Shown here one piece after another: positions 1,384 to 6,856 of a stretch of DNA of 17,295 nucleotides. The stretch comes from Methylacidiphilaceae bacterium (lineage in GTDB: Bacteria; Verrucomicrobiota; Verrucomicrobiia; Methylacidiphilales; Methylacidiphilaceae). The notes beneath the pieces are model-generated. The model saw only the letters and a list, made by a program, of their open reading frames with translations, did not search any database and was not told where the DNA came from. Position 1 is the stretch's first letter. Every line of letters starts with the position of its first letter. A program made the position numbers and the translations under genes. The DNA lies in the NCBI GenBank assembly GCA_028687155.1, contig JAQUAR010000002.1:1-17295 (forward strand), in the 5' to 3' direction.

Positions 1384-2570
1384 CGCATCCCCCAAAAGTG
1401 CGAATAGCTCCGAGGCTGGTCGACACCACCCTCCGGGATGGAGAGCAGGCTCCCGGAGTCGCGTTCTCGCGGGAGGAAAAGCTCCGCCTGGTCCAAGCCC
1501 TCATTGCCGCGGGAGTACCCGAGATCGAAGCGGGCATTCCCGTCATGGGCAAGGAGGAGCGACAGACCCTCCGGGCGATGGCGGCATATGCTAATTCCCG
1601 CTGCCGGCTCATCTCCTGGGGAAGAATGCACCCGGCCGATTTGGCAGCGATCCAGGACCTGCCCATCCGTTTTGCCAACCTTTCGGTCCCGGTCTCCGAT
1701 CTCCAGATCGAGAAAAAGCTGCAAAGATCCCGTAGCTGGGTTCTGGAAACGGTCCGCCGGTTCGTCCGGGAAGCCATTGATCTTGGCCTAGAGGTGGCGG
1801 TCGGGGGAGAAGACTCCTCTCGCGCCGACCTGGACTTCGTCCTCCGGGTCGCGGAGACCGCCCAAGCCGCCGGCGCCTCTCGCTATCGGTTCGCCGACAC
1901 CCTTGGCATCCTCGATCCCTTCTCGACCTTCCGGTCGATCCGCAAGCTTCGTCGCGCGGTGGATATTGAAATCGAGATCCATGCGCATGACGACCTGGGA
2001 ATGGCGACTGCGAACTCCCTGGCGGCCTACCGGGCGGGGGCGACACACATCAGCGTCACCGTAAACGGGCTAGGCGAGCGGGCGGGCAATGCGCCACTCG
2101 AGGAAGTGGTGGCGGCCCTCCGTTACGGTAGCCAAATCGACTGCGGCGTACCGAGTGCTTCCCTTCCCTCCCTTTCCACGCTCGTAGCGCAGATTTCGGG
2201 ACGTCCGATTCCCCAGGCGAAAAGCATCGTCGGCAGCACGGTCTTCACCCACGAATCGGGAATCCACGTGGACGGCCTCCTCAAGGATCCCTGGAATTAC
2301 CAAGCTTTCGATCCCAGGGAGCTGGGCCGCTCCCACGAGCTCGTTTTGGGCAAGCATTCCGGCCCCCGGGCGATCCAGTGGGGCTATCAGCGGCTGGGGA
2401 TCGACCTCTCGCTTTCCGAAGCCGAAGCCCTGCGCCAACCCATTGCCGATTTTGTCACCGAATGGAAGCGTTCCCCCCAGCGCTCGGAACTCCTCCACCT
2501 CCTCTCGGCTGCAACCGCCCGCACCGCCTGCTCCACAAGCGTTGGAGAAAGCTCGCGGGATGCAGCCTAG
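1380..2570 (+). CDS. nifV: Homocitrate synthase NifV
   Basis: NifV condenses acetyl-CoA with 2-oxoglutarate to (R)-homocitrate, the organic ligand of FeMo-cofactor. The 396-aa protein has the DRE-TIM/HMGL-like signature [12 protein letters not shown] at residues 15-26, the metal-binding HAHDD at 201-205 (His201, His203) and [14 protein letters not shown] at 229-242. A C-terminal domain contains the HESGIHVDG and LGKHSG motifs usual in homocitrate/isopropylmalate synthases. I took ATG 1380 because [10 protein letters not shown] is normally close to the N-terminus; AGGA lies only about 3 nt upstream of it. GTG 1398 is an alternative. The open frame extends far upstream (to 846), but that part is antisense to nifH and not family-like. 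Divergence from nifH and a nif-type promoter favour NifV over a lysine- or leucine-pathway paralogue. Confidence 0.93.
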
Positions 2571-3667
2571 GAGGCCATCCGGCCCACGTCTAGCTTCATG
2601 TCCAGCTTCAGCTGGGCTAACGCAAGCTGGAGCTCCTGCCGGATCATCCGCAACGCCTCTTGCGAGAGACGCTTTTTCTCATCGATCGCCGAACTGAGCT
2701 CTTCCCGGTAGGCGGAGAGGGATGCGGCTACCTGACGCAAACACTCATGCCAAGCGGCCGCGATGCGGCACATGGATTCCTGAGCCGAGATCCGGGAAAG
2801 ATGGGAATCGATTTTGCTCTGGGCCGCCACCAGTTCCGCTAAGAGAATCCGCTCCGCGGGAACCCGCCGCAGGTTGCTGACGAGCCCGATCCGATGCAGA
2901 AGCCAGATCGTCCATTTCGTCGGATCCCACTGCCACGGTTTTACCCCGTTGCGATAATCGTGCTGAAACTCATGATGAAAGTTATGGTAACCCTCTCCGA
3001 AGGTAAACAGCGCCATGATCCAACTGTCCCGAGCAGTGCATCGAAACGAATAGGGCTGATCACCCACCATGTGGCAGAACGAATTGATGAAAAAAGTCAT
3101 CTGCTGCACGGCCACCACTCGGGTGACGCCCCCGACCAGGAATCCGCCCAAGGCCCCAATCCAACCTCCATGAAGAGCTCCCAAGGCCGTCGGCAGGCCG
3201 AAGCCCACCAGAAATGCCAGGGGGACCATATATTTGTTCTGCCATCGACAGAGAGGATCGGATAGCAGATCCTTTACATTGTCCAGGGAGCGGACGGGTT
3301 GGAGCTTCACGAGGAGCCATCCGATATGCGCGTGGAAAAACCCCTTGCGAATATCATAGGGATCCTCGTCGTGATCGACATGCTTGTGGTGATACCGATG
3401 ATCAGACACCCAGCTGATCGCCGATCCCTCAAAGGAGGCGGCCCCAAAGAGCAGCACGAAGAGGCGCACCGGCCATTTTGCTTGAAAGGCTCGATGGGAA
3501 TAGAGGCGATGATAGCCAAGGGTGACGCTCAATCCGGTCGCCAGGAATAAGCCGAAAAAAACCGTCCACTGGTACCAGTCGATGCCGTAGAAAAAGGCGT
3601 AAGCCGGCATCGCGGTTAACGCGAGAATAAGGGTGGAAATCAAAAAAATGCTCGTCGGCCAATTCAT
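2567..3667 (-). CDS. Membrane fatty-acyl (delta-9 type) desaturase with an extra C-terminal helical region
   Basis: The enzyme inserts a cis double bond into saturated acyl chains (acyl-CoA or lipid-linked), using O2 and a di-iron centre in the membrane. The three histidine boxes are all present: HRLYSH at 53-58, HRYHH at 90-94 and HNFHH at 228-232. [12 protein letters not shown] at 195-206 is also typical of the stearoyl-CoA desaturase family. Hydrophobic segments lie near 6-24, 33-50, 67-85, 145-165 and 168-190. The catalytic part ends near residue 270. The last ~95 residues are charged, leucine/alanine-rich and probably coiled coil, beyond what most bacterial desaturases carry. The stop codon overlaps the nifV stop (shared CTAG, 2567-2570). 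I see no convincing SD before ATG 3667. Confidence 0.93.
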
Positions 3668-3981
3668 ACGTTTAATCCGCAGTTATCATGACGGCGCACC
3701 CAGGCAAGGAGACGGAATCCGGTAAAAGGAGTGAAAGAACCTCCTGCCGTTGCCATAAGTGCGTTAACCAAGTTGTAGTTCCGCTTCGAAGAAAAACAGC
3801 TTTTCTTAAAAAAAGGATAGCCCAGAAGCTTTCGGGTTTACAGCCCTTTTTTCCGGTCAAAGCCGATTGGTTTTCCTTTCGTCTTGCGCCGGCTGCTGGT
3901 TCTCCCTTTCCCTCCTCCACCCGAGCCGTGCACTCCGCTACGTTTTTGGAGAACATCCGAATTGAACCCGACCGCTTTCGA
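3668..3981. other. Non-coding interval between desaturase and glyS remnant
   Basis: I see no convincing gene in these ~310 bp. The open frames crossing it lack an RBS and any recognisable protein pattern. It is visibly richer in A/T runs than its surroundings, especially around 3790-3860, and it holds the possible minus-strand terminator at 3808-3836. The desaturase promoter should lie here, but no clear -35/-10 pair stands out. Confidence 0.6.
3808..3836 (-). terminator. Weak candidate intrinsic terminator, minus strand
   Basis: On the minus strand an imperfect hairpin (CCCGAAAG / CTTCTGGG, from 3836-3821) is followed by six bases and a run of seven T (3814-3808). It would end transcripts coming from glyS and the HEPN cassette before the desaturase gene. 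The stem has a wobble and a mismatch, so the call is tentative. Confidence 0.3.
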
Positions 3982-4127
3982 TCAAGAGACGCGCAACCGC
4001 AAATAGTCGAGAAGCTCCGCGATCCGGACGCGCTCCTGGCGCATGCTGTCGCGCTCGCGGATGGTCCCCGTCTCCTTTTCCCCGGAGAGCGCCCCGCTCC
4101 TCACCCCTTCCAGGGTTTCGAAGTCGA
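3982..4127 (-). pseudogene. Detached 3' end of a glycyl-tRNA synthetase gene
   Basis: Read on the minus strand this stretch encodes the last 47 residues of a GlyRS anticodon-binding domain, starting DFETLEGVRS and ending in LLDYLRLRVS and a TGA stop. It corresponds to residues 411-457 of the intact glyS at 5441-6814. The first 118 bp are 116/118 identical to that gene. The last ten codons and stop keep the frame and protein similarity (LLDYLRLRVS against LLEFLRPRVS) but differ at many bases, as between related species. It has no start codon or upstream GlyRS sequence, so it is not a functional gene. It is most simply the original glyS tail displaced by the insertion of the neighbouring cassette. 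Confidence 0.85.
4010..4127 (+). repeat. 118-bp direct repeat, copy A (glyS 3' end)
   Basis: It is identical to 5469-5586 at 116 of 118 positions, in the same orientation; the mismatches are at 4024 and 4067. It bounds the lower-GC cassette on its left side. At 4128 the similarity stops abruptly; below 4010 it decays to protein-level similarity only. Confidence 0.95.
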
Positions 4128-4148
4128 GCCTCTTCCCGCCTCTAAGCG

Positions 4149-4541
4149 TCAAACACCGGATAGCTCTCCCAGAAGTTCGACGATCCGCTGAGCTTTTGCC
4201 AAGTTTTGCGGAACTTTACTTTCCCAGTCTGGGATGTCCCCCTTGTAATCCGCATGGCAACGGTCGGCATGGAGTTGCGTCAAAAGTTGTCCAATCGATT
4301 GTTCGACTGGATTGGATGATTGTTTGAAGAGATTGCGCACCCGCTTATGCCCTGCGTTCTCTCCTCGGGCACGGGATCCCAAATGGGTTCTGGCGGGACA
4401 GAAGACCGCGAAGTACGCCCGGTTCATTGCGGTGCGTAGGCATGCTTCACGGGGAACGGAGGGAAAGGAACCCTCTTGGAGGTTCCTGGCCAGCGACAAA
4501 AAGCTGGTCCAGTCAAACTTCGGAGAACCCGACATGAACAT
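4149..4541 (-). CDS. HEPN/UPF0332-like domain protein (third gene of cassette)
   Basis: This 130-aa all-helical protein fits the HEPN superfamily pattern of the UPF0332 type. A helix carries LRTAMNRAYFAVF (residues 35-47), a conserved-type His is at 65 (GHKRV), and the final helices hold RCHADY (94-99) and a Leu/Ala-rich tail. HEPN proteins include RNase toxins, often paired with nucleotidyltransferases, and components of defence systems. The strict R-x4-6-H catalytic motif is not obvious here, so RNase activity is uncertain. ATG 4541 has AAGG about 9 nt upstream and overlaps the end of the preceding gene by 29 bp; ATG 4535 is the alternative start. Pfam PF05168 membership is my pattern judgement, not a search result. 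Confidence 0.65.
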   Translation of the reverse strand: MFMSGSPKFDWTSFLSLARNLQEGSFPSVPREACLRTAMNRAYFAVFCPARTHLGSRARGENAGHKRVRNLFKQSSNPVEQSIGQLLTQLHADRCHADYKGDIPDWESKVPQNLAKAQRIVELLGELSGV

Positions 4542-5118
4542 CCAGCTTGCCTTCGCGAAAGGCCTGCTGTCGAAACCACCACTCCCGACAGAACGTTTCG
4601 AACTTCCGCAGGCCTTCTGAGATCGGGAGCTGCACCGTCGCGAAAAGCACAAGCATTCGGTCGTCTGGCTCCTCCGGATTTTCCACGACTTCTAATACGG
4701 GAGACGCGATCAACCGGTTCTTAAAATGGGCATCAAGCTTCTCTCTCATGCTGACGATCACTGACTGCAAATCCGGATTTTGCCGCAGGAAGAGCAGGAC
4801 CACTTCTCTTGCCTCCGCGTCGGAAGGAAGGAAAGGCACAGCTACGCCGGGAGAAAGCTGAACCGCATCCAATGAGGGAACGGAAAGAAGCCATTCGCCA
4901 GCAATAGGCGCTCGTATGACAAATTCTGACCACCATCCGACCTGTGCAGAAGGAGACGAAGTTACCAGTGGCCCGCCCTGTGGTTGGCCAGCACTGATCC
5001 ATGCGGTTGTTGCCCCAAAATATGCCCGCTCTTCGACTTTTCCCTCTGTAGGCCGACAAAGTCCCCAGGCTTCCGCCTCAAAAGAGACGCTTCGGACGGG
5101 CATTTCCGCAGCAATCAT
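4513..5118 (-). CDS. Unknown protein, second gene of the HEPN cassette
   Basis: This 201-aa soluble protein belongs to no family I can name. The N-terminal half (residues about 1-110) looks beta-rich, with many Gly, Ser, Pro and Trp. The C-terminal half is alpha/beta and ends in a segment with LVLFATVQLPISEG, LRKFETFCREWW and GKLDVHVGF. I have the impression of seeing similar endings in proteins encoded beside HEPN genes, but cannot confirm it. ATG 5118 has AAGGA about 7 nt upstream and overlaps the stop of the preceding gene as ATGA (5115-5118), indicating translational coupling. It overlaps the HEPN-like gene by 29 bp. It lacks the GSxxxxD...D motif of minimal nucleotidyltransferases, so this is not the classic MNT-HEPN pair. 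A role as partner or antidote of the HEPN protein is inferred from context only. Confidence 0.75.
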   Translation of the reverse strand: MIAAEMPVRSVSFEAEAWGLCRPTEGKVEERAYFGATTAWISAGQPQGGPLVTSSPSAQVGWWSEFVIRAPIAGEWLLSVPSLDAVQLSPGVAVPFLPSDAEAREVVLLFLRQNPDLQSVIVSMREKLDAHFKNRLIASPVLEVVENPEEPDDRMLVLFATVQLPISEGLRKFETFCREWWFRQQAFREGKLDVHVGFSEV

Positions 5119-5396
5119 GGTTGATCCTTCCGCTCGGTGCTGGACGCGTGTTCCATGAACACAAACGGAGCAGATTGAACGCCATAGAGAGGCTTGCCCG
5201 CAGGATCCTTCTTTTCTCGCGAACGGAGGATTCGGATGATCTCCGCCTTGACCCGAATGACCGTTCCGTCCTCGAGTTCCGCTACCGTCCATCCCTCGCT
5301 GCGCATTTTGAAGGGAACTTCCTCGGCGTCCTTCAAGAGTCCATTGGGTGGAAAAGGCGTCGCCACGATCTCTCTATCCCTCTGTTTTGAGCGCAA
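5115..5396 (-). CDS. Small beta-rich unknown protein, first gene of the HEPN cassette
   Basis: This is a protein of up to 93 aa with a central segment WTVAELEDGTVIRVKAEI followed by PAGKPLYGVQS. The alternating hydrophobic pattern suggests a small beta-barrel. The longest frame begins with TTG at 5396, which has no clear SD. GTG at 5366, preceded by AGAGGG, would give 83 aa and may be the real start. The gene begins 44 bp or more downstream of the glyS stop, with no strong terminator between, so the cassette may be transcribed by read-through from glyS. Its stop overlaps the next start (ATGA). I do not recognise a function; the tight coupling indicates that the three products work together. 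Confidence 0.7.
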   Translation of the reverse strand: MRSKQRDREIVATPFPPNGLLKDAEEVPFKMRSEGWTVAELEDGTVIRVKAEIIRILRSREKKDPAGKPLYGVQSAPFVFMEHASSTERKDQP

Positions 5397-5440
5397 GCCA
5401 AATTCTTTTTACAGGCAGGCTGGTTCCCCGAGCGCCGGGT

Positions 5441-6814
5441 TCAAGAAACTCGTGGCCTCAGGAACTCAAGAAGCTCCGCGATGCGGACGCGCTCCTGGCG
5501 CATGCTGTCGCGCTCGCGGATGGTCACCGTCTCCTTTTCCCCGGAGAGCGCCCCGCTCCTCACCCCTTCCAGGGTTTCGAAGTCGATCGTCACGCCAAAC
5601 GGTGTGCCCGCCTCGTCCATACGGCGATAGCGGCGGCCGATGGCACCGCTCTCATCGTAGAAAATCCGCAACTGCATCCGCAAGAGGTCCGCGACCTCCC
5701 GGGCCTTTCGGACGAGCTCCTCGTTGTTCTTGAGGAGCGGGAAGACGCCGGCTTTGATCGGCGCCACGCGAGGAGAAAAATGGAGGACGACCCGTTTTTC
5801 CACCTTCCCTCCTTCGGCAACCACATCCTCCTCGTCATAAGCCTCACAGAGGATCGCCAGGAACGTTCGATCGACCCCTCCGCTCGGCTCGATCACATGC
5901 GGGACGAATTTCTGTCCGGTCTCCTCGTCGAAATATTCGAGAGGCTTGCCGCTGGCGACTCCATGTTGTCGCAAGTCGAAATCGGTCCGGTACGCGACCC
6001 CCTCGAGCTCCTGGCGCCCAAAGGGAAACGTGTACTCCAGATCATAGGTCTTTTCCGAGTAGAAGGCTCTCTCGCCCTCAGGCACGTCCCGCACATGAAT
6101 ATGCTGCCGCGGGAGCCCGATCGACTCGTACCAGGCGAGTCGGGCTTCCTTCCACTTCTCCAGCTCTTCGAGCCCGGTTCCGGGACGAACGAAATACTCC
6201 ACCTCCATCTGCTCAAACTCCCGCGAGCGGAAGAGAAAATTTCGCGGATTCACCTCATTGCGAAACGATTTTCCAATCTGAGCGATGCCAAACGGGATCT
6301 TCTTGCGCGACGTCTCGAGGACGTTACGGAACTGAACGAACATCGCTTGTGCCGTTTCCGGACGGAGGTAGGTCAGCGCACTCTCCTCTTCCAAGGGACC
6401 GACGTAGGTCCGGAAAAGGAGGTTGAATCTCCTCGGCTCCGTCATCTCCCCGCCGCATTCTCCTGGATGCTTGGACGGTTTTTGGGGACAGCGGGCATCG
6501 GCCATCTGATCGACACGAAAGCGCGCCTTGCACCTCTTGCAGTCGACCAGCCAATCGACGAACTGCTCCTCATGCGTGCTCGCTTTCCAGACTGCCCGGT
6601 TCATGAGAATCGAACCATCGAGACCCACGATATCGTCGCGCAGCTGGGTCATCGAACGCCACCAGAGCTCCTTGATATTCCTCTTGAGTTCCACCCCCAG
6701 AGGTCCGAAGTCCCAGAGGCCGTTCAGCCCTCCGTAAATTTCGGAGGAGGGATAGACGAAACCGCGACGCTTACACAGAGCAACAAGCTTTTCCATTAAG
6801 GGTTCTTCTGTCAT
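5441..6814 (-). CDS. glyS: Glycyl-tRNA synthetase, single-chain alpha2 type
   Basis: This class II enzyme charges tRNA-Gly as a homodimer. The 457-aa length matches bacterial alpha2 GlyRS. FVYPSSEIYGGLNGLWDFGP is at 19-38. A Cys cluster (CKRC 92-95, Cys109, Cys120) could bind zinc. RPETAQ is at 151-156, motif 2 FRNEVNPRNFLFRSREF at 184-200, and motif 3 EPSGGVDRTF at 309-318. An anticodon-binding domain occupies about 340-457. I chose ATG 6814, although no clear SD is visible; the frame also opens from TTG 6853, and ATG 6796 is possible. The codons for residues 411-450 belong to the duplicated 118-bp segment. The last residues probably come from the inserted cassette, yet the domain is intact. 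The gene is divergent from the AsmA-like gene. Confidence 0.96.
   Translation of the reverse strand: MTEEPLMEKLVALCKRRGFVYPSSEIYGGLNGLWDFGPLGVELKRNIKELWWRSMTQLRDDIVGLDGSILMNRAVWKASTHEEQFVDWLVDCKRCKARFRVDQMADARCPQKPSKHPGECGGEMTEPRRFNLLFRTYVGPLEEESALTYLRPETAQAMFVQFRNVLETSRKKIPFGIAQIGKSFRNEVNPRNFLFRSREFEQMEVEYFVRPGTGLEELEKWKEARLAWYESIGLPRQHIHVRDVPEGERAFYSEKTYDLEYTFPFGRQELEGVAYRTDFDLRQHGVASGKPLEYFDEETGQKFVPHVIEPSGGVDRTFLAILCEAYDEEDVVAEGGKVEKRVVLHFSPRVAPIKAGVFPLLKNNEELVRKAREVADLLRMQLRIFYDESGAIGRRYRRMDEAGTPFGVTIDFETLEGVRSGALSGEKETVTIRERDSMRQERVRIAELLEFLRPRVS
5469..5586 (+). repeat. 118-bp direct repeat, copy B (inside intact glyS)
   Basis: This is the partner of 4010-4127 (116/118 identical, same orientation; mismatches at 5483 and 5526). 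It lies wholly inside glyS, covering codons for the end of the anticodon-binding domain. Together the two copies frame the accessory cassette like attL/attR-type boundaries. Confidence 0.95.
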
Positions 6815-6856
6815 AAGAAAAAAGGACCGCCGCGCGAGCCGCCCGTCGCGCAAACG

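What the first reader, a model, noticed from the sequence alone, without database searches (positions are those of the whole stretch)
3982..5586. Duplicated glyS 3' end flanking a three-gene cassette: a gene-end insertion site in a tRNA synthetase
Two direct 118-bp copies (116/118 identical) of the end of glyS bracket about 1.34 kb of lower-GC DNA. Both copies continue to a stop codon with homologous but diverged tails (LLEFLRPRVS in the intact gene, LLDYLRLRVS in the detached copy). This is the pattern expected when an element carrying its own version of a gene's 3' end inserts and rebuilds the gene, leaving the native tail at the far side. Integration into tRNA genes is common; glyS as the target is, to my knowledge, not a well-known case. 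No integrase lies inside.
Basis: partly seen in the sequence, partly recalled or inferred. Interest (0 to 1): 0.75.

Follow-up and report, generated by a model that had tools for sequence, protein, structure and literature searches.

The report
Toxin-like cassette inserted at glyS end
In a methane-eating acid-loving bacterium, a small block of three genes, one resembling known bacterial toxins, sits inside a duplicated end of an essential gene, giving that gene new last letters and leaving the old ones behind; relatives without the block show the empty site.

Summary
Two 118-bp copies (4010-4127, 5469-5586; 116/118 identical) flank 1,341 bp of lower-GC DNA with three overlapping minus-strand ORFs. 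The window is a Methylacidimicrobium MAG. Of the 7 genus genomes held, this one included, 3 have an empty site, AP8 has a decayed cassette at the same place, 1 is rearranged, and M. tartarophylax breaks inside the repeat, with cassette proteins on separate 1.4-kb contigs. The detached tail is native: 32/32 bases match the empty-site relative G002, against 21/32 for the tail now in the gene. So this is an insertion, not an old tandem duplication. Two refinements: both 118-bp copies are of the resident's own type, so the insert brought only the last ~10 codons plus the cassette; and no integrase was found. Silent-site divergence of the cassette from AP8 (24%) is below four of five neighbouring genes (40-45%), indicating transfer between species. 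Gene C is a HEPN protein; B weakly resembles partners of other HEPN genes; A is unknown. Most likely a toxin-antitoxin-like cassette entered by homologous recombination at glyS, resembling the 'insertion with long target duplication' of restriction-modification systems. Mechanism and toxicity are inferred.

The parts
5441..6853 (-). glyS, glycyl-tRNA synthetase; its body is of resident type
   Evidence: NCBIfam PRK04173.1 E 2.9e-178; 95% identical to G002 over 470 aa and 98% to G006 over its held part, residues 7-427
5469..5586 (-). repeat copy 1, inside the working gene
   Evidence: 116/118 with copy 2
5441..5468 (-). acquired last codons of glyS (...LLEFLRPRVS stop)
   Evidence: last 32 nt: 21/32 with G002, 25/32 with G005 and 25/32 with G003
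5115..5366 (-). gene A, 83 aa, GTG start (93 aa if the TTG at 5396 is used), function unknown
   Evidence: besides the window's own copy the protein search returned only M. tartarophylax (P0007) and M. sp. AP8 (P0008); codon-position differences against G005 of 5/82, 6/83, 18/83
4513..5118 (-). gene B, 201 aa, overlaps the end of A; no named family
   Evidence: weak similarity to the genes upstream of HEPN in Gloeothece (E 0.004 and 0.13), none at E 1 to those of G010, C207 or Thermus; close homologues P0001, P0002
4149..4541 (-). gene C, 130 aa, overlaps the end of B; HEPN-superfamily protein
   Evidence: PADLOC HEPN_IX E 5.8e-5; PDB HEPN chain 9xbd E 1.4e-12 by profile; AlphaFold pLDDT 85.5, top Foldseek hit a HEPN protein at E 0.025, none under 0.001
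4010..4127 (-). repeat copy 2, detached from the gene
   Evidence: starts directly after the cassette end
3982..4009 (-). detached native last codons of glyS (...LLDYLRLRVS stop)
   Evidence: last 32 nt: 32/32 with the single glyS of G002, 31/32 with the G006 contig end
4128..5468 (.). the 1,341-bp insert between the repeat cores
   Evidence: no DNA match in G001-G004 or G006, match in G005 at 79-82% at the same place
3668..3981 (.). native glyS-desaturase spacer
   Evidence: 42 of 313 aligned bases differ from G006, 66 of 293 from G002
2567..3667 (-). fatty acid desaturase, the conserved downstream neighbour
   Evidence: PF00487 E 2.1e-17; follows glyS by about 250, 420 and 340 bp in G001, G002 and G004

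Best explanation
A horizontally acquired three-gene cassette (A, B and the HEPN protein C) is inserted at the 3' end of glyS with a 118-bp duplication of that end. Order: glyS body - repeat - new tail - A - B - C - repeat - native tail - desaturase. Shown: empty sites in relatives, native tail on the far side, the same cassette at the same place in a second species, and less silent divergence in the cassette than in four of five neighbouring genes. Inferred: incoming DNA from another Methylacidimicrobium that already carried the cassette behind its glyS recombined with the resident glyS by homology, swapping the last ~10 codons. The far side joined, or recombined again, at the start of the repeat. 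RecA-type recombination between the two repeats could remove the cassette cleanly and restore the native tail, and an R-cassette-R unit could enter any related glyS without its own recombinase. B and C probably act as a toxin-antitoxin-like or defence pair that makes loss costly; A is unknown.
For: Empty sites G001, G002, G004. Detached tail 32/32 with G002, working tail 21/32. Tail type follows the cassette: RPRVS in 2 of 2 genes with it behind them (G000, G005), RLRVS in 4 of 4 without (G001-G004). Third-position differences from G005: cassette 98/415, against glyS 183/459, desaturase 153/353, nifV-like 153/365, AsmA-like 362/798 (p 3.5e-7 to 5e-14). M. tartarophylax: the glyS contig ends 14 nt inside the repeat and the desaturase contig starts in its last ~18 nt with the native tail; cassette proteins C and A come from 1,401- and 1,419-bp records of that species. 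Repeat copies 116/118 and both of resident type. ComEC and DprA families in 7 of 7 genus genomes, consistent with DNA uptake; both families also ring in 10 or 11 of 14 control genomes, so this is weak.
Against: The tail test rests on 32 nt, and G003 is 25/32 to both tails. G005 has no clear second glyS copy: a possible decayed one at the expected place scores 17 against glyS with 12 of 300 simple shuffles as good, and in a start-anchored test 3 (with G005's own repeat) and 6 (with the window's) of 1,500 genomic positions did as well; the anchored test was chosen after seeing the local alignment. nifH silent divergence (87/295) is not significantly above the cassette (p 0.083). The window is a MAG (83.6% complete, 336 contigs). 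No cassette was found in the held M. tartarophylax assembly. C shows no codon-position bias against G005 (20, 23, 24 of 131), so its function is not supported by selection here.
Confidence: 0.7

Rival explanations
1. Site-specific integration: a former integrase-bearing element carrying a replacement glyS 3' end inserted at the start of the repeat and later lost its integrase, as phage 21/e14 do in icd (recalled) or ICEs in lysS.
For: Gene end rebuilt, native end on the far side, same site used in G005; lysS precedent (PMC4701971, passages).
Against: No integrase family in A, B or C. Both 118-bp copies are of resident type, whereas a carried 3' end should look foreign over the whole repeat unless later homogenised. 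Reported lysS repeats are 13-17 bp.
Confidence: 0.17
2. One old insertion in an ancestor of the genus, lost several times by recombination between the repeats, with the two repeats kept alike by gene conversion.
For: Cassette proteins in several members: G005, M. tartarophylax, strain 3C, JGI contigs; possible decayed second copy in G005 at the same joint; if shared with M. tartarophylax and unconverted, about 10 differences between copies would be expected and 2 are seen (binomial 0.0015; 0.13 if both copies are given the slower glyS rate).
Against: The cassette is less diverged at silent sites than 4 of 5 neighbouring genes. The detached, now non-coding tail is still 32/32 with G002 although the spacer beside it differs at 66 of 293 bases (P 0.0003 to 0.03 by the rate assumed).
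Confidence: 0.2
3. Plain partial tandem duplication of the glyS end, with the cassette arriving by chance between the copies.
For: Direct repeats in tandem order.
Against: The new tail goes with the cassette in G005 and the old tail with empty sites; no comparable duplication without the cassette is seen in the genus genomes with a complete glyS end (G001-G005).
Confidence: 0.05
4. Assembly chimera of two strains in the MAG.
For: 336-contig MAG.
Against: An isolate, M. tartarophylax 4AC, has contig breaks just inside both repeat edges and cassette proteins on small contigs, and G005 is a single-contig genome with the cassette at the same site.
Confidence: 0.04

Closest known systems
Insertion with long target duplication (Nobusato et al. 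2000, not seen; [quoted passage not shown]
   Same: An insert present in one genome and absent from a relative, flanked by direct copies of a target of about 100 bp, moving without a known mobile element (PMC1643837 and PMC3874152, passages).
   Different: Cargo is a HEPN-containing trio, not an R-M system; the insert starts with a different version of the target gene's last codons; the same site is occupied in another species.
Minimal mobile elements of Neisseria
   Same: Small gene cassette between two conserved genes, said to be exchanged by homologous recombination alone (PMC3898611, passages).
   Different: Only one cassette type was seen here, and it is flanked by a duplicated gene end.
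Gene-end integration by ICEs (lysS, guaA, rpsI) and by phage 21/e14 in icd
   Same: Conserved gene's 3' end used and rebuilt with small changes (PMC4701971, passages; the icd case is recalled).
   Different: No integrase found; repeat 118 bp, not 13-17 bp as in lysS; insert 1.3 kb.
Displaced toxin/immunity modules of CDI loci
   Same: A new 3' end displaces the old one downstream, with shared sequence that could allow recombination back (PMC4927057, passages).
   Different: The gene is an essential synthetase, and the cargo, not the tail, is the toxin-like part.
HEPN-MNT toxin-antitoxin systems
   Same: HEPN protein encoded with an overlapping upstream partner gene.
   Different: B matches no nucleotidyltransferase family in Pfam or NCBIfam; C lacks the usual catalytic His (motif recalled).

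Membership tests
Insertion with long target duplication | insert absent from a relative with the site otherwise intact | tested here: met
   G001, G002, G004
Insertion with long target duplication | direct repeats of about 100 bp that are single copy at the empty site | tested here: met
   118 bp; single copy in G001, G002, G004
Insertion with long target duplication | cargo is a restriction-modification system | tested here: not met
   no R-M family in A, B, C
Insertion with long target duplication | target sequence itself unchanged at both sides | tested here: not met
   tails differ, 21/32
Integrase-mediated gene-end element | integrase gene in the element | tested here: not met
   none in A, B, C
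Integrase-mediated gene-end element | target gene kept whole by a supplied 3' end | tested here: met
   glyS reads through to LLEFLRPRVS
Minimal mobile element | different cassettes between the same two conserved genes in different strains | tested here: not met
   same cassette (2), empty (3), rearranged (1) or unresolved (1) in 7 genomes
Minimal mobile element | incorporation by homologous recombination only | not testable with these tools
   inferred; ComEC/DprA families present in 7 of 7
HEPN superfamily | HEPN sequence profile and helical fold | tested here: met
   Pfam gave no match
HEPN ribonuclease toxins | R-x(4-6)-H motif (recalled) | tested here: not met
   invariant R94, D98, Y99 among 8 sequences instead
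HEPN-MNT toxin-antitoxin | MNT nucleotidyltransferase partner | tested here: not met
   B matches no such family; two other HEPN genes of the phylum do have one beside them, judged by eye

The most novel reading that the evidence does not exclude
A recombinase-free mobile unit: a toxin-antitoxin-like cassette that carries a duplicated end of an essential tRNA-synthetase gene as homology arms, so that ordinary RecA recombination lets it enter and leave glyS in any related cell, remaking the enzyme's C-terminus each time and keeping its arms matched to the host.
Probability: 0.3. Interest if true: 0.65.

Novelty: new variant of a known kind. Interest (0 to 1): 0.45.

Why it matters
It is a comparative case, with empty, occupied and decayed sites in one genus, of a small cassette being spread without a visible recombinase by borrowing the end of an essential gene. 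It makes the old idea of insertion with long target duplication testable outside restriction-modification systems, and adds glyS to the synthetase-gene ends used as insertion sites.

Tried and rejected
Integrase or prophage remnant in A, B, C: none by Pfam, NCBIfam, PADLOC, PHROGs; C does match a phage family of unknown function (phrog_5176). Plasmid or viral source for B: no match in plasmids or viral contigs. A in plasmids: one hit at E 1, taken as chance. C in plasmids: 5 distant records, 4 of them opened. A glyS-end hotspot beyond this genus: of 116 loci with a complete glyS end (some genomes counted twice), 3 had only short hits of 21-34 nt and none a comparable second copy. Structure of B: low confidence (pLDDT 56.2), fold search uninformative. 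A paper holding both HEPN and TIGR04255: none. Literature on glyS as an integration site: one search listed 7 papers, none on this subject by title or shown abstract start; none was opened. A six-term search on gene conversion, partial duplication and toxin-antitoxin found none. Furuta et al. 2010 is not held. The count of codon positions was run twice: (other gene bounds, glyS frame off by one), which is the one cited.
Full report
Setting. The window is contig C271 of a 1.89-Mb, 336-contig MAG. Its nearest relatives are Methylacidimicrobium: contig lengths tie G006 to M. tartarophylax, G003 to M. cyclopophantes, G002 to isolate STB_62 and G001 to LP2A, and G005 to AP8 (contig length 2,300,970).

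The repeat. Copies 4010-4127 and 5469-5586 agree at 116 of 118 bases. Each is followed, reading in the direction of glyS, by a tail ending in TGA. The cassette ends directly where the detached repeat begins.

Relatives. Desaturase follows glyS after about 250 bp in G001, 420 bp in G002 and 340 bp in G004: empty sites. In G003 glyS is followed by the nifV-like and nifH genes, and the desaturase is on another contig. G005 carries the cassette directly behind glyS, at 79-82% DNA identity, with a one-base insertion in A, several indels in B, and C split by a 182-bp insert with 20-nt perfect inverted ends. In G006 the glyS contig stops 14 nt inside the repeat and the desaturase contig starts in the last ~18 nt of it, with tail LLDYLRLRVS. 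That genome was assembled from single-end reads made with a 36-cycle kit, and the paper describes second versions of the assembly, binned on GC and coverage (PMC7163025, part 1 of 2 of the text), so a repeat longer than a read would break contigs. The cassette is not in the held assembly, but proteins C and A from M. tartarophylax are recorded on contigs of 1,401 and 1,419 bp, about what a 1,341-bp insert plus repeat ends predicts. That these contigs fill the gap is an inference; I could not read them.

Which tail is native. Over the last 32 nt the detached tail is 32/32 with G002, 31/32 with G006, 25/32 with G001, G003 and G004 and 21/32 with G005. The working tail is 21/32 with G002, G006 and G001, 22/32 with G004 and 25/32 with G003 and G005. 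By protein the split is RPRVS with the cassette (G000, G005) and RLRVS without (G001-G004). Among single-copy genes only G003 is equally near to both tails at the DNA level.

What was brought in. Both repeat copies share three bases that none of G001-G005 has at those places, and both are closest to G002 (107 and 105 of 114 compared positions). So the repeat is resident sequence and the foreign part begins at the last ~10 codons. Either the duplication is recent or the copies have been homogenised. If the arrangement predates the split from M. tartarophylax, about 10 differences would be expected and 2 are seen (P 0.0015). With a glyS-like rate for both copies the expectation is 4.8 and the result is unremarkable (P 0.13).

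Transfer. Against G005 the third codon positions differ at 98/415 in A+B+C but at 40-45% in glyS, desaturase, nifV-like and AsmA-like; nifH, with 87/295, is not significantly different. The cassette is therefore younger between these two genomes than most of the genes tested around it. C shows no codon-position bias (20, 23, 24 of 131) and B little (40, 41, 56 of 200-201), as expected with a decayed copy in G005; A does (5, 6 and 18 of 82-83).

A trace in G005. Behind its cassette, at the point where the window has the detached repeat, G005 has a stretch resembling the glyS end: local score 17 (shuffle mean 12.7, maximum 22; 12 of 300 as good); start-anchored, 3 and 6 of 1,500 genomic positions as good, true glyS positions among the pool. 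This is suggestive only, and the anchored test was chosen after the first result.

Cargo. C matches HEPN proteins by PADLOC and by a profile against the PDB, and its model is HEPN-like, though no Foldseek hit is below E 0.001 and Pfam gives none; R94, D98 and Y99 are invariant among 8 sequences in place of the classical motif. HEPN homologues occur with a short gene directly upstream in G010 and in Thermus brockianus pTB1 (both behind a TIGR04255 gene; the Thermus HEPN is not annotated), in another contig of this genome (C207) and in two Gloeothece plasmids; in Nitrosomonas the partner is a nucleotidyltransferase. Of the 10 pairs among those five upstream genes (G010, C207, Thermus, two Gloeothece), 8 reach E 3e-5 or better, but B itself reaches only the Gloeothece ones, weakly (E 0.004 and 0.13), so its family link leans on position. 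A match to the HEPN alignment at E 1e-5 was found in 13 of 288 genomes of the phylum, this one included. A toxin-antitoxin or defence role is an inference from kinship.

Mechanism. No recombinase was found in the cassette. ComEC and DprA families are found in 7 of 7 genus genomes and RecA is encoded in this window, so uptake and homologous recombination are possible but not shown. A donor carrying the cassette behind glyS could anchor by homology in the resident glyS, giving the tail switch, and join at the start of the repeat. If the donor already had the repeated arrangement, two crossovers in the repeats are enough. Loss by recombination between repeats would restore the native tail, the state of the empty sites.

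Known kinds. [quoted passage not shown] original papers not seen). Neisserial minimal mobile elements (PMC3898611, passages), ICE insertion at lysS (PMC4701971, passages) and displaced CDI modules (PMC4927057, passages) share single features. I file this as a variant of insertion with long target duplication in how it looks, not as a proven member.

Noticed in passing
L116:4999-5184 (AP8, G005): A 182-bp insert with 20-nt perfect inverted ends, probably a MITE, splits gene C. One search counts 43 matches in G005, 41 in M. tartarophylax and 24 in this MAG; G005 and M. tartarophylax were capped at 40 scored candidates, and 3 of the G005 matches are the same places on the other strand.
   Followed up: partly
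G000:C207 (L162:1468-2413): A second HEPN gene with an overlapping short upstream partner in the same genome, away from glyS.
   Followed up: partly
G011:C1:1221965-1223337 (L013, L121): In one relative of another genus of the family the glyS 3' end is split between two frames near residue 440: frame shift or assembly error.
   Followed up: no
G000:C204:4167-4948: The ComEC match of this MAG falls in two adjacent pieces while 6 of 6 other genus genomes have one.
   Followed up: no
L115:1-2552 and L129 (G003): In M. cyclopophantes the nifV-like and nifH genes lie directly downstream of glyS and the desaturase is on another contig, so this neighbourhood has been rearranged.
   Followed up: no
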